64,000 nt of DNA from Planctomycetales bacterium 10988 (GTDB lineage: Bacteria; Planctomycetota; Planctomycetia; Pirellulales; Pb10988), in contig CP043547.1 of the NCBI GenBank assembly GCA_009664345.1, forward strand, positions 2,260,709-2,324,708. Reading direction: 5' to 3'. The notes beneath the pieces are model-generated. The model was not told the origin of the DNA, searched no databases, and was given only the letters and a program-made list of their open reading frames with translations. The position numbers and the translations under genes were made by a program. Positions 17,303-53,222 of this stretch are shown piece after piece. Numbering within the stretch: the stretch's first letter is position 1; each line of letters starts with the position of its first letter.

Positions 17303-18187
17303 TTAGGCGATTCTCTCCGCAATGCGAAGTTTCGCACTCCGCGAACGTGGATTCCTGGCGATTTCTTCTTCGCTGGCGGTCATCGGTTTTTTGGTGATGA
17401 CTTGCAATCGTTCATCGCTACGAAAGGCCTCTTTCACCGGACGATCTTCCAAAGAATGAAAACTTATGATCGCCAAACGTCCGCCCCGCTCCAGGCAATC
17501 GGGCAAGACGCGGAGTGCCTTCTTTAAAGAGCCGAGTTCATCATTCACCGCGATTCGCAACGCCTGAAAAGTTCGGGTGGCCGGGTCGATTTTGGCCGCT
17601 CGCGGATTTCCGGGAATGGCTCGCCGCACAATCTGGGCCAGTTCGCCGGTGGTACGAATGGGTTGTTCCTGCCGACGCTGTACAATCGCCCTGGCGATCC
17701 GGCGACTAAACCGTTCCTCTCCATATTGATAGATCAAATCGGCTAGCTCCTTTTCTTCGCTTTGGGCAATCCACTCCGCGGCGGAACCCCCTTCTTCCGG
17801 ATTGAATCGCATATCGAGCGGGCCATCTTGTTGAAAACTAAACCCCCGCTCCCTGGCATCGAGCTGATCGCTGGAAAGCCCCAGATCAAGCAAAATCCCT
17901 TTCACTTTCGGCTGCTTGACTTCCGCCAGGATCTCAGGGAGTTCGGTATAATTCGCCACGGCGACCATCACCGGAAGCCCCTTCAAATTCACTTCCGCCG
18001 CGGCCACCGCCTCCGGATCGCGATCGACGCTAACGACAAGTCCTTCCTTGCCAACGACTTCCGCCATCGATCTGGTATGCCCCCCTGCTCCGAGCGTGCC
18101 ATCGGCCACCCGATCCCCTGGCGAAAGGCGTAGCCCTGCCAAGACTTCAGCGGAAAGAACAGGGATATGAACTCTGGGTGTGGGCAT
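17303..18187 (-). CDS. rsmH: 16S rRNA (cytosine-1402 N4) methyltransferase
   Basis: 294 residues from the ATG at 18187. It methylates N4 of C1402 in the decoding centre using SAM. Family motifs: HIPVLSAEVL at the start, the SAM loop DGTLGAGGHTRSM, ILLDLGLSSDQLD, GPLDMRFNP, and ISFHSLEDRPVKEAF near the C-terminus. The frame stays open for 52 more codons upstream. That part is encoded by a C-rich heptamer tract and is not conserved, so I start at the Met where homology begins; no Shine-Dalgarno is visible there. In many bacteria rsmH heads the division/cell-wall cluster, but here no mraZ, ftsL or mur gene follows, as is usual for planctomycetes. Confidence 0.93.
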   Translation of the reverse strand: MPTPRVHIPVLSAEVLAGLRLSPGDRVADGTLGAGGHTRSMAEVVGKEGLVVSVDRDPEAVAAAEVNLKGLPVMVAVANYTELPEILAEVKQPKVKGILLDLGLSSDQLDARERGFSFQQDGPLDMRFNPEEGGSAAEWIAQSEEKELADLIYQYGEERFSRRIARAIVQRRQEQPIRTTGELAQIVRRAIPGNPRAAKIDPATRTFQALRIAVNDELGSLKKALRVLPDCLERGGRLAIISFHSLEDRPVKEAFRSDERLQVITKKPMTASEEEIARNPRSRSAKLRIAERIA

Positions 18188-18380
18188 GGGGTAGGGAGTA
18201 GGAGTTAGAGGCGAGGGACGAGGGGCGAGAACTTTACTTACAGTTGAAGTTTTTCTCAAACCCATGTTTGCTGGTTGGCTTACTTCAATCATTCTTTTTA
18301 GAGGAAAGAAGAGAAAAGGGATAGAGGCCCGAGTTCCCACCAAAGACTTTCCATCACGACTCTCGCCCCTCGTCTCTAAC
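18188..18380. repeat. Inverted pair of heptamer tracts (element 1)
   Basis: The left arm 18188-18229 is six consecutive 7-base units on the plus strand: GGGGTAG, GGAGTAG, GAGTTAG, AGGCGAG, GGACGAG, GGGCGAG. The right arm, read on the minus strand from 18380 to 18361, is GTTAGAGACGAGGGGCGAGA. The left arm contains the same 20 bases at 18204-18230, interrupted by exactly one extra heptamer (GCGAGGG). The arms are therefore inverted repeats that differ by one unit, around a 130-base centre. The left arm directly abuts the rsmH start codon. Confidence 0.75.
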
Positions 18381-18498
18381 CTCCCGCCACTTCTCTAATC
18401 CCGATTCCCCTTTTCTCTTTCCCAACTCCCCGGTAAGCTTAGTAGACACGTAATAGAGAAGCCGATCGATTCGTCTGAGACGTAAAGGAGACAAGGGA

Positions 18499-19254
18499 GT
18501 GTACGTCGCTGGTTCTACAGAATGTTTTCCACGTCTTTCCATGGAAGCCGCGCTCACCAAGCTGAGCGATCTTGAATACACCAGAGTGGAAATTGCGGTC
18601 TCGGATGAAGGAAGACAACTTCAACCCGCCGAGGTGGCTGAAAACCTCGAAGGGAGCATCCGCCGCTGTCGAGATATTCATCGGCTGACCCCGGTGGCCT
18701 ATGCCTTCCGTTCCAAAGCGAAAGGTCAAGAACTTTACGACCAGTTCGCGGGCACGGCGAAGTTGGCCAAAGCCACCAAAACGGTCATCATCACCGTGAG
18801 TGCCTCGGAGTTGGGCTATCCCTTCAATGAAGAAGTCAACCGCTTGCGCGAACTCGTCCGCTTGGCCGGCGTCGAAGGAGTGCTAGTCAGTCTCCGCACT
18901 GAACCGCAACGCCTTAGCCAAGACCCCGAAACCTTGCTCTCGCTTTGCAATCATGTCAAAGGTTTGGGCATCGCCTTCGATCCCAGCCATTACGTACATG
19001 GTCAATTCGCTGGGTACGATTACACCCCGCTGCTGCAACATGTCACCCATGTGATGCTGCGAGATACCAACGAACACAAGCGGCAAGTCCAAGTCGGCCA
19101 AGGAAATATCGACTACGGCCGTATCATCACGCAGCTCGACAGCCTCAAATATCGCCGTTCGCTCACCGTTCACATCGTGGAAGACGGCTCCGCTGAAATC
19201 GATCACGACAGCGAAATGCGTAAACTCCGCCTTTTGTTGGAAACGCTGGTTTAG
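18499..19254 (+). CDS. Sugar phosphate isomerase/epimerase-like TIM barrel
   Basis: 251 residues starting from a GTG at 18499 with AAGGAG about 9 bases upstream. It belongs to the xylose isomerase-like TIM-barrel family: VRLAGVEGVLVSLRTEP, LGIAFDPSHYVHG, VTHVMLRDTNEHK and SLTVHIVEDGSAEID follow the strand pattern. The expected strand-end Glu of the first metal site is less obvious here (SLRTEP), and Asp/His (DPSHY) and Glu (VEDG) supply likely ligands. It is cytoplasmic with unknown substrate. It is divergent from rsmH, with heptamer element 1 between them. Confidence 0.82.
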   Translation: MYVAGSTECFPRLSMEAALTKLSDLEYTRVEIAVSDEGRQLQPAEVAENLEGSIRRCRDIHRLTPVAYAFRSKAKGQELYDQFAGTAKLAKATKTVIITVSASELGYPFNEEVNRLRELVRLAGVEGVLVSLRTEPQRLSQDPETLLSLCNHVKGLGIAFDPSHYVHGQFAGYDYTPLLQHVTHVMLRDTNEHKRQVQVGQGNIDYGRIITQLDSLKYRRSLTVHIVEDGSAEIDHDSEMRKLRLLLETLV

Positions 19255-22239: not shown

Positions 22240-22248
22240 TGGTTTGAA

Positions 22249-22379
22249 GGGGCGAGGGACAAGGGGCGTGGGGCGAGAAAATAAAGAAAGCAGTATTCAA
22301 TCAAGAGAGAAACAAAAAACACTTTTTAGATTATGCTCCCCTACTCTCCACACTCCACCCATCACTCCCCACCCTCTAC
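22249..22379. repeat. Inverted pair of heptamer tracts (element 2)
   Basis: Left arm (plus strand, 22249-22276): GGGGCGA, GGGACAA, GGGGCGT, GGGGCGA. Right arm (minus strand, 22379 down to 22338): GTAGAGG, GTGGGGA, GTGATGG, GTGGAGT, GTGGAGA, GTAGGGG. Both keep a strict 7-base period and both G-rich strands point inward. The centre (59 bases) contains TTCAATC and an A/T box AAAAAACACTTTTTAG. The left arm lies 9 bases upstream of the permease start, and the right arm encodes the last residues and stop of the cupin. Confidence 0.65.
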
Positions 22380-22752: not shown

Positions 22753-22918
22753 GGTTTCGGGTTTCAGGGTTCGGGTTTCGGGAAAAGTCCCTCAAATACA
22801 AAAAGTAGTTTTTGTTTATAATCAAACTACTTCCTTCAATCTAAAAAGTAGTTTTAGTTTTCACCAGCCTGAAGAGTTTCCATCTCTACTCTCGCCCCTC
22901 GTCCCCATCCTCTCGCCC
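22753..22918. repeat. Inverted pair of heptamer tracts (element 3)
   Basis: Left arm 22753-22780: GGTTTCG, GGTTTCA, GGGTTCG, GGTTTCG on the plus strand, one base from the cupin ATG. Right arm, minus strand 22918 to 22884: GGGGCGA, GAGGATG, GGGACGA, GGGGCGA, GAGTAGA, directly after the TAG stop of the SPFH gene. The right arm shares the 15 bases GACGAGGGGCGAGAG with element 1. The centre of about 100 bases holds the A/T boxes. Confidence 0.65.
22800..22856. promoter_or_regulatory. A/T boxes AAAAAGTAGTTTT, possible operator
   Basis: AAAAAGTAGTTTTT at 22800-22813, an inverted half (AAACTACTT) at 22824-22832 and AAAAAGTAGTTTTA at 22843-22856. The last is preceded by TTCAATCT. The same TTCAATC plus AAAAAGTAGTTTT combination occurs at 41686-41706, upstream of a transsulfuration gene, with a single mismatch. 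The boxes lie about 50-105 bases upstream of the cupin. A repressor-binding role is inferred from position and repetition only. Confidence 0.4.
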
Positions 22919-24322
22919 CTAGAAGGCATCTTCCCCGCCAAGTTGTTCTTCGACCTGATCGGCTTGGTAGGCGATCGCGGCCAGGCTGCGGCTGATTTCG
23001 AGGGCATCGGCGGTGTCGGCAAGTTGGTTGGCTTGCAAGACGACCATGGGGCGACCGTTCATGGTCGTGACGGCAAAGGAACCATTAAGCAAACGGTCAT
23101 TGTATTGCAGGAGCTTCATAGCGATCCGATCACTCGCGACTCCACAAATCGAACGGAAGCGAATCATAGAATAGCCTTCTTTATCCTTCACGCTGAAATC
23201 CACTTCGACTTGCTGCTTCCGCAAAGTCCCAACAGGAACCGTCACTTGCCAGCGTTCCCCTTGAAAATCGCAGTGATAGCCAGCCGCTTCAATTACTTGT
23301 TTGACCAGGGACTCGGGATCGGTGGCGGCCTTGACTTGATTGGGATTGCCCAAGTCGGAAAAGTCAAATCCAAAGTCTCCAGCGGGCGACGCAGAAGATG
23401 GCGGCGTGGTCGGATTCGTCGCCGCGGTACTCGGAGGGGTCACGCCCGATGCTTGGGAGCGAGAAGGGTCCGTTCGCTGCATGGCCTCACGAAGCAGTTG
23501 TGGCATCATCATCCCAAAACCAAGCCCCATTCCCATGCCAGCGGAATTGCCCCCTTCGCCGCCTCGCTGCTCGGCTAGCTTGGAAAGACTATTGGCCGTT
23601 TGGTATTGCATAAAACTATTGAGATCGCCCAAGGCCCCCATCGCGCTGCGGGCATCCACCGCTTTCTGAACTTCATCTGGAACACTGATCGCACTCAAGA
23701 AAAAGTCAACGAGTTCCAAGCCATACTTCGCAAAATCCTGAGCAACCTTGGCCCGCGTGGCGGCGGCGATCTCGTCGTATTGAGCAGGTAGGTCCACAAC
23801 GCTAATCGTTAGGTTGCCCAACAAATCAGCCAACCGCGAAACGACGAGGTCTTTAAGATAGCGGGTGATCTCTTCTGTCGTGTACTTGCCTTGGGTGCCA
23901 ACAAGCGTATTCAGCAGCAGTTCGGCATTCTCAATTCGCATCGAAAACTTGCCAAAACTCCGCAGGCGAACTAAGCCAAATTCAGAATCCCGAAAAATAA
24001 TCGGCTGCCGCGTACCCCACTTCTGATCGATAAATGTCTGTTTGCCAAAGAAATAGACTTGAGCTTGAAAGGGAGATTTCTCCCACGGAATGGTCAGCAG
24101 TCGGGTGAGAATCGGCACGTTGGCCGTCGTCAGGGTGTAGCGGCCGGGGCCGAATTTATCCATCGCCTTGCCATCGCGAAAGAAAATCGCTTCTTGATTT
24201 TCTTGCACGATCAGTTGGGCACCCCATTTAATATCCGCCGATCCGTGCGCAGGGACCCGTTGCACCAGGGAGCGATTGCTCTCATCAAAGGATTGAATGA
24301 CTTCCAAGCGAATGCCCATCAT
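22919..24322 (-). CDS. SPFH-domain protein with C-terminal YbjN-like domain
   Basis: 467 residues. Residues 20-240 form an SPFH (stomatin/band 7-like) domain of the YdjI/virion-core type ([35 protein letters not shown], and [18 protein letters not shown] into [17 protein letters not shown]). A Gly/Met-rich stretch ([13 protein letters not shown]) and a Ser/Pro/Thr linker follow. The C-terminal 150 residues ([41 protein letters not shown]) resemble YbjN/secretion-chaperone-like domains. No TM helix is visible, so it may assemble at the membrane surface. It follows the 24382-24882 gene by 59 bases and is probably co-transcribed. Its TAG stop abuts heptamer element 3. Confidence 0.85.
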
Positions 24323-41619: not shown

Positions 41620-41643
41620 CTCACGGATTCCTTCCAAAATCTC

Positions 41644-41716
41644 AAAAAGCGTTTTTTATATCAAATGCAAAAAGCACTTTTAATATTCAATCGAAAAAGT
41701 AGTTTTGGGATTTAAT
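41644..41716. promoter_or_regulatory. Three 25-bp direct repeats with AAAAAG-N-TTTT boxes
   Basis: AAAAAGCGTTTTT (41644), AAAAAGCACTTTT (41669) and AAAAAGTAGTTTT (41694) are spaced exactly 25 bases apart. The intervening bases are also alike (ATATCAAATGC; ATATTCAATCG). They lie 25-90 bases upstream of the transsulfuration start codon. The third box with its TTCAATC flank recurs at 22835-22855 upstream of the cupin. Arrayed operator sites are a reasonable reading. Confidence 0.45.
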
Positions 41717-52514: not shown

Positions 52515-52518
52515 TGTA

Positions 52519-52547
52519 GGGGCTAGGGAGTAGGGAAGAGGGAGTAG
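52519..52547 (+). repeat. G-rich heptamer tract, left arm of element 5
   Basis: GGGGCTA, GGGAGTA, GGGAAGA, GGGAGTA in strict 7-base register. The opposite arm at 53025-53222 carries GGGAATA units on the other strand. The four-helix-bundle gene lies between them, with its stop 3 bases from this arm. Confidence 0.75.
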
Positions 52548-53024: not shown

Positions 53025-53222
53025 TATTCCCTATTCCCTATTCCCTATTCCCTATTCCCTATTCCCTATTCCCTATTCCCTATTCCCTATTCCCTATTCC
53101 CTATTCCCTATTCCCTATTCCCTATTCCCTATTCCCTATTCCCTATTCCCTATTCCCTATTCCCTATTCCCTATTCCCTATTCCCTATTCCCTATTCCCT
53201 ATTCCCTATTCCCTATTCCCTA
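53025..53222 (-). repeat. Tandem array of 28 perfect TATTCCC heptamers, right arm of element 5
   Basis: 198 bases consist of 28 uninterrupted TATTCCC units plus two bases, with no mismatch. The G-rich strand (GGGAATA) is on the minus strand, opposite to the left arm. It begins about 100 bases upstream of the four-helix-bundle start and ends inside tilS, supplying the last codons and TAG stop of that gene. Perfect uniformity points to recent expansion, probably by slippage. Confidence 0.97.

What the first reader, a model, noticed from the sequence alone, without database searches (positions are those of the whole stretch)
18188..18380. Element 1: inverted arms identical apart from one heptamer
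The 20 bases GTTAGAGACGAGGGGCGAGA on the minus strand (18380-18361) recur on the plus strand at 18204-18230 with exactly one extra 7-base unit. This shows true inverted-repeat ancestry plus unit-wise slippage, not chance G-richness. It supports the idea that these tracts are paired arms of one element.
Basis: seen in the sequence. Interest (0 to 1): 0.65.

Follow-up and report, generated by a model that had tools for sequence, protein, structure and literature searches.

The report
Paired four-heptamer arms flanking a spacer
Two G-rich, seven-base-periodic tracts facing each other sit in the gap between two genes of a planctomycete; they belong to a dispersed family of four-unit repeats that marks gap edges across this bacterial order, a kind reported before in Geobacter and Xanthomonas, and they are not a private slippage product.

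Summary
The 20-mer on the minus strand (18380-18361) equals plus 18204-18230 less one heptamer, and shuffles hardly reproduce it (0/1000; 5/1000 when only the tracts are shuffled). The reading needs changing. (1) The two arms are not each other's closest kin: the partner ranks 5th of 23 within the genome. (2) Slippage is not what the family shows: excess over a reversed control lies at four units (29 v 6) and five (11 v 3), none at two or three, and unit order is non-random (GGGGCGA-GRGGTTA-GRGRCGA-GGGGCGA|GAG). (3) The 128-bp core is unique in the genome, so this is not a conserved-core MITE. The tracts are dispersed four-heptamer words at spacer edges with the G-strand pointing inwards (27 v 5; 21 v 2 in a relative), sometimes as convergent pairs. 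The word occurs in 22 of 397 genomes of the order and, as a 20-mer, in other phyla. Relatives have many spacers with complementary edges in several other repeat vocabularies. The same architecture was described in Geobacter (predicted regulator sites) and Xanthomonas/Nostoc (G4 heptamers). Function is unproven. A paired protein-binding site fits best; a three-tetrad G-quadruplex and an RNA hairpin fit worse.

The parts
18188..18230 (+). left G-rich heptamer arm, directly abutting the rsmH start codon (minus strand ATG at 18187-18185); last four units GGAGTTA GAGGCGA GGGACGA GGGGCGA, then GA
18361..18390 (-). right arm: four units GTGGCGG GAGGTTA GAGACGA GGGGCGA, then GA(G) (word W1, unit 1 degenerate)
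18391..18431 (-). outer, more degenerate G-rich extension of the right arm (TRF period 21 array 18391-18431)
18231..18358 (.). core between the arms; single copy in the genome
   Evidence: next best match E = 0.74
17303..18187 (-). rsmH (16S rRNA C1402 methyltransferase), divergent neighbour
   Evidence: TIGR00006, E 3e-95
18541..19254 (+). AP_endonuc_2-like TIM-barrel protein, divergent neighbour (start may be GTG 18499)

Best explanation
The two tracts are copies of a dispersed, non-coding four-heptamer word (about 30 bp: GGGGCGA GRGGTTA GRGRCGA GGGGCGA, then GAG) that lies at the edges of intergenic spacers with the G-rich strand pointing into the spacer, sometimes as a convergent pair around an unrelated core. 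Shown: the four-unit mode, the unit order, edge position, inward orientation, genome-wide dispersal, absence of a shared core, and persistence of one such pair at an orthologous spacer of two congeneric species. Inferred: each word is a recognition site of a chromosomal DNA-binding protein. Units 1 and 4, the best conserved, start 21 bp (two helical turns) apart, so they lie on one face of the helix, and a facing pair would bracket the spacer. The spread of new words is inferred to be copying between sites. It is not slippage and not transposition of arm plus core.
For: 20-mer at up to 3 mismatches occurs at 18 places in the own genome against 1 for the backwards control. In spacers of a 1.2 Mb sample, 30 tracts score >= 14 against 0 in shuffles. 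Inward against outward: 27:5 (p 1e-4), G015 21:2 (p 7e-5). Convergent pairs 12, divergent pairs 0. Excess at four units, 29 v 6. Order test p 2e-4, and p 6e-4 on 18 arms of the sample that was not chosen by the word. Core unique. Word W1 in 22 of 397 order genomes including several other families. Pair kept at the serC-serA spacer of G443/G463 with order kept. Same architecture described as paired predicted regulator sites in Geobacter metallireducens, PMC2700814.
Against: No binding protein is known and none was searched for. The word is missing from most relatives (375 of 397), so it cannot be an essential site of a conserved regulator. Most arms are single, not paired, and pair excess in the own genome is weak (block C p 0.03-0.05, block B not significant). 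The register of the four units was set by me from the inner end, and part of the arm set was found with a query that ended in GGGGCGAGA.
Confidence: 0.45

Rival explanations
1. G-quadruplex repeats: four G-tracts fold into a G4 on one strand (i-motif on the other) and modulate transcription or mRNA ends, as proposed for Xanthomonas and Nostoc heptamers.
For: Four units is exactly the number a G4 needs and is the mode here as in PMC4692102. Position near stop codons (sense) and upstream of starts (antisense) is the same.
Against: Only 10 of 32 own-genome arms keep four GGG tracts; unit 2 has an A at position 2 in about half. Neither arm of this element keeps four closely spaced GGG tracts in its four units.
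Confidence: 0.2
2. RNA hairpin: the arms pair in a transcript that runs through both and terminate, stabilise or regulate it.
For: DNA fold z -2.7, plus-strand RNA fold z -2.2. Relatives have many spacers with complementary edges.
Against: Here the flanking genes diverge, so neither mRNA should contain both arms. Minus-strand RNA fold is ordinary (z -0.3). In codirectional spacers mismatches do not favour sense-strand G-U pairs (27 sense, 49 antisense).
Confidence: 0.12
3. Simple tandem repeat grown by slippage in each arm.
For: The one-heptamer difference itself. True slippage arrays exist in this genome: GGGAATA x28 at window 53025-53222 and GGGGCTA x8 at genome 1888928.
Against: No excess of two- or three-unit tracts, excess at four and five. 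Unit order fixed across loci.
Confidence: 0.1
4. MITE- or REP-like mobile element with the arms as terminal inverted repeats.
For: Dispersed, intergenic, inverted arms; these two genes are not neighbours in the relatives searched. A 119-bp arm-plus-core block recurs at three other places. An arm is present in G463 but absent at the orthologous spacer of G443.
Against: The core of this element is single copy and cores of other pairs are unrelated. Arms have no GTAG-tagged hairpin of their own. No target duplication was established.
Confidence: 0.13

Closest known systems
Paired tandem 7-/8-mer sites of Geobacter metallireducens (Aklujkar et al. 2009, PMC2700814: 49 elements of four heptanucleotides GGACCGG; classes 1-3 of predicted IHF/HU-type global regulator sites)
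   Same: three to five tandem short units; several classes lie as pairs on opposite strands with variable distance; four-heptamer elements; multicopy
   Different: other unit sequences, other phylum; their four-heptamer family also lies within genes; called putative regulatory elements there, none tested
G-rich heptameric repeats GGGNATC / GGGGA(C/T)T of Xanthomonas and Nostoc (Rehm et al. 2015, PMC4692102)
   Same: G-rich heptamers, preference for four units, intergenic, near stop on sense or upstream of start on antisense, 70-75 convergent pairs per Xanthomonas genome, sites largely conserved between two species
   Different: unit here is mostly GGGRNNA with fixed order of different units and often a broken G-tract in unit 2; taxon is a planctomycete order
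TAACTGA heptamer repeats of Beggiatoaceae, Cyanobacteria, Bacteroidetes (MacGregor 2015, PMC4679880)
   Same: intergenic heptamers just upstream of start codons, patchy across phyla
   Different: uniform direct repeats, hardly ever inverted
REP / BIME elements (GTAG-tagged palindromes, PMC3733652)
   Same: intergenic, inverted pairs; GTAG-type palindromes do occur at spacer edges in the relatives
   Different: each REP is itself a hairpin; the heptamer arms are not

Membership tests
Rehm-type G4 heptamer repeats | tandem G-rich heptamers with preference for four units | tested here: met
   29 four-unit tracts against 6 in reversed control
Rehm-type G4 heptamer repeats | intergenic, near stop (sense) / upstream of start (antisense), convergent pairs | tested here: met
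Rehm-type G4 heptamer repeats | four intact G-tracts able to form a G4 | tested here: not met
   10 of 32 arms; neither arm of this element has four closely spaced GGG tracts
Rehm-type G4 heptamer repeats | unit GGGNATC or GGGGAYT | tested here: not met
   units are GGGGCGA, GGGGTTA, GGGACGA, GAGGCGA and the like
Geobacter paired tandem-repeat sites | pairs of 3-5-unit sites on opposite strands at variable distance | tested here: met
Geobacter paired tandem-repeat sites | bound by IHF/HU-type regulator (predicted there, untested) | not testable with these tools
   no binding data
MITE | copies share terminal inverted repeats and internal sequence | tested here: not met
   core single copy; other cores unrelated
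MITE | target site duplication | not tested
   no empty site available for this locus (genes not neighbours in the relatives)
REP/BIME | GTAG or CGTC tag next to a short palindrome in each unit | tested here: not met
   no such palindrome in either arm
known structured RNA | match to an Rfam family at gathering score | tested here: not met
   none in the window

The most novel reading that the evidence does not exclude
In this planctomycete order a general process gives intergenic spacers matching inverted edges: 16-26% of sampled spacers in three genomes (G443, G463, G023) and about 10% in G015 have complementary edges built from any of several repeat vocabularies (G-rich heptamers, units such as CACGAAGGA and CACGGAT, REP palindromes). 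At one orthologous spacer both arms changed together (within-spacer scores 35 and 39, between species 12-13), as if one edge were used as template for the other or as if pairing were selected at the DNA level. The four-heptamer word would be one alphabet of that process.
Probability: 0.25. Interest if true: 0.75.

Novelty: new variant of a known kind. Interest (0 to 1): 0.42.

Why it matters
Short tandem repeats in bacterial spacers are usually explained by slippage or G4 formation. Here the number and order of units are preferred across loci and the same word recurs in several families of one order, while G-tracts are often broken. That argues for recognition of a specific word of about 30 bp rather than for slippage or simple G4 folding. 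If paired spacer edges are as common and as dynamic as in G443/G463, the origin of much non-coding sequence in planctomycetes becomes testable by strain comparison.

Tried and rejected
Baum-Welch training of the heptamer HMM drifted to generic purine-rich sequence, so fixed emissions were used. The first whole-block scan against reversed sequence was not discriminating. Telomere-like G-strand addition at double-strand breaks was considered, because it would give the convergent orientation; no evidence for it was found and it was not pursued. The shared 119-bp block was considered as the core of a MITE, but it has only three full copies and is absent from this element. A clustered chromosomal distribution (20-mer hits at 1.97-2.9 and 4.0-5.4 Mb) was dropped because a looser pattern also hits 3.0-3.8 and 5.84 Mb. 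The first version of the unit-order test included noise tracts and gave no signal (p 0.23); it was repeated on curated arms and on arms of the unbiased sample. Rfam gave nothing.

Full report
Observation. The sequences and coordinates are as stated: 18204-18230 (+) is GTTAGAGGCGAGGGACGAGGGGCGAGA and 18380-18361 (-) is GTTAGAGACGAGGGGCGAGA, identical after removal of one heptamer. The gapped local score between the two halves of the spacer is 16.0. Of 1000 dinucleotide-preserving shuffles none reaches it (max 15.7); when only the tracts are shuffled 5 of 1000 do; when whole heptamers are permuted 37 of 1000 do. So the match is above chance, but a good part of it is simply that both tracts are written in the same heptamers.

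Place. The stretch lies in the spacer between two divergent genes, rsmH on the minus strand with its ATG at 18187 (TIGR00006, E 3e-95) and a TIM-barrel protein of the AP_endonuc_2 family on the plus strand. The left tract starts on the first base after the rsmH start codon. The own genome is one 6.65 Mb contig and is the only one of its family among the 40 genomes searched first. Records in the named collection that carry the word include MAGs called Pirellulales, Planctomycetales and Planctomycetota, and one genome of the own order, G514, holds the same contig as the Pirellulales record (compare L241 and L107). I therefore read the organism as a planctomycete of or near the order Pirellulales; the tools did not name it.

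Dispersed family. The 20-mer with up to 3 mismatches lies at 18 places in the own genome against 1 for the pattern read backwards. A heptamer HMM on the spacers of a 1.2 Mb sample found 30 tracts scoring at least 14 nats against none in shuffled spacers. Tracts within 60 bp of a gene point their G-rich strand into the spacer 27 times and outwards 5 times (p 1e-4); in the order relative G015 the counts are 21 and 2 (p 7e-5). The median distance of inward tracts to a stop codon is below zero (they overlap it) and to a start 0-11 bp. Where a spacer holds tracts on both strands, the order is always plus then minus: 6 in the own sample, 6 in G015, none the other way.

Not a private pair. In 12 own-genome pairs the left arm was compared with its own partner and with the other right arms. 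For this element the partner ranks 5th of 23. Over the whole set partners are a little more alike than strangers (permutation p 0.013), carried mainly by two other elements, one of which (3611336-3611530) has arms identical over 28 bases.

Four units in a fixed order. Reading the arms in sevens back from their inner end shows a four-unit word. Compared with reversed sequence, tracts of two (338 v 356) and three (41 v 46) units show no excess, four units 29 v 6, five 11 v 3. The consensus is GGGGCGA GRGGTTA GRGRCGA GGGGCGA GAG, with a second version GGGGTTA GGGGCCA GGGATTA GGGGTTA. Unit identity depends on position (p 2e-4 on 32 curated arms; p 6e-4 on 18 arms from the sample that was not selected by the word). 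An earlier version of the test that included noise tracts gave no signal. Unit 2 has an A at its second base in about half of the arms, and only 10 of 32 arms keep four GGG tracts. The finding's right arm is GTGGCGG GAGGTTA GAGACGA GGGGCGA GAG and its left arm GGAGTTA GAGGCGA GGGACGA GGGGCGA GA: two versions of the word with the TTA unit one place apart. Slippage arrays also exist in this genome (GGGAATA x28, GGGGCTA x8) and look quite different.

No shared core. The 128 bases between the arms match nowhere else in the genome (next best E 0.74), and cores of other pairs are unrelated. A separate block, AAAAAGCGGTTTTTG ... next to a C-rich arm, recurs at three places at 74-100% identity to the query but is not part of this element.

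Relatives. The 31-base word with up to 3 mismatches is in 22 of 397 genomes of the order, in several families, and in none of the others; in 392 genomes sampled over the phylum a 23-base version is in 10. The 20-mer pattern occurs in 27 stretches of the GTDB collection, mostly two Lentisphaerae MAGs but also Elusimicrobia, Planctomycetota and single MAGs called Kuenenia and Rhodanobacter. Those last two are single contigs of MAGs and may be misbinned. In the records L104, L107 and L120 the first unit, which the pattern did not demand, reads GGGGCG[A/G], as in the own genome. rsmH and the TIM-barrel gene lie on different contigs or far apart in the relatives searched, and only the own genome has this pair of arms near either of them, so the element is specific to this lineage.

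Two congeneric species, G443 and G463, allow a comparison. At the serC-serA spacer both keep the convergent pair with the same unit order while the core has diverged; there the left arms resemble each other and the right arms each other more than left resembles right (38.5 and 42.9 against about 20). At another spacer both species have arms that are nearly identical within the species (scores 35.0 and 39.0) but differ between species (12.4 and 13.1). At a third an arm is present in one species only. So arms can be stable, can be replaced together, and can appear or vanish.

A wider pattern. A test free of any vocabulary, comparing the two edges of each spacer, found complementary edges (score at least 14) in 10 of 62 spacers of G443 (expected 0.4), 19 of 73 of G463 (1.0), 14 of 69 of G023 (0.5), 21 of 206 of G015 (1.3) and 11 of 573 of the own genome (0.15), the last mostly hairpins between convergent genes. 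The samples of the relatives include regions chosen because they hold the word, so these rates may be high for the genomes as wholes. The repeats are G-rich heptamers, units such as CACGAAGGA and CACGGAT, and GTAG-type palindromes. In codirectional spacers the mismatches do not favour G-U pairs in the sense RNA (27 against 49), which speaks against selection for an RNA hairpin.

Known kinds. Aklujkar et al. 2009 (PMC2700814) describe in Geobacter metallireducens elements of four tandem heptanucleotides, and paired sites on opposite strands made of tandem short units, predicted to bind IHF/HU-type regulators. Rehm et al. 2015 (PMC4692102) describe G-rich heptamers in Xanthomonas and Nostoc with a preference for four units, the same placement at gene edges, and in Xanthomonas 70-75 convergent pairs per genome. 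The element here has the architecture of both; it differs in unit sequence, fixed unit order, frequent loss of the G-tract in unit 2, and taxon. I file it as a new variant of a known kind.

How it works. I think each word is a recognition site for a DNA-binding protein, with the conserved units 1 and 4 two helical turns apart, and that a facing pair brackets the spacer. The step from sequence to function is inference. A G4 role remains possible for intact words, a hairpin role is unlikely at this divergent locus, and slippage and a conserved-core MITE are disfavoured for the reasons above.

Noticed in passing
window 22248-22277 (+) and 22336-22376 (-): A second convergent pair of G-rich tracts in a spacer; the left one is GGGGCGA GGGACAA GGGGCGT GGGGCGA.
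   Followed up: partly
window 52517-52547 (+) and 53025-53222 (-): Third convergent pair; the right tract is a perfect array of 28 GGGAATA units, a real slippage array facing a four-unit word.
   Followed up: partly
window 22884-22922 (-): Single four-unit arm GGGGCGA GAGGATG GGGACGA GGGGCGA GAG.
   Followed up: partly
G000:C1 3770709, 2751118, 1889000 (L150-L152): A 119-bp block with AAAAAGCGGTTTTTG and a C-rich arm recurs at three places; short AAAAAGTACTTTTTG-like motifs are scattered much more widely (also the period-25 array at window 41637-41706).
   Followed up: partly
G443 C8:57264-57496 and its G463 orthologue: Inverted spacer arms nearly identical within each species but different between species, as if both arms changed together.
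   Followed up: partly
L099-L125 (two Lentisphaerae MAGs): Spacers are mosaics of several heptamers (GGGGCGA, GCTGAAT, CATAATT) and GTGGACA-type repeats in composite tracts.
   Followed up: no
L267, G023:C1 325779-326012: Spacer edges with a perfect 48-base inverted match.
   Followed up: no
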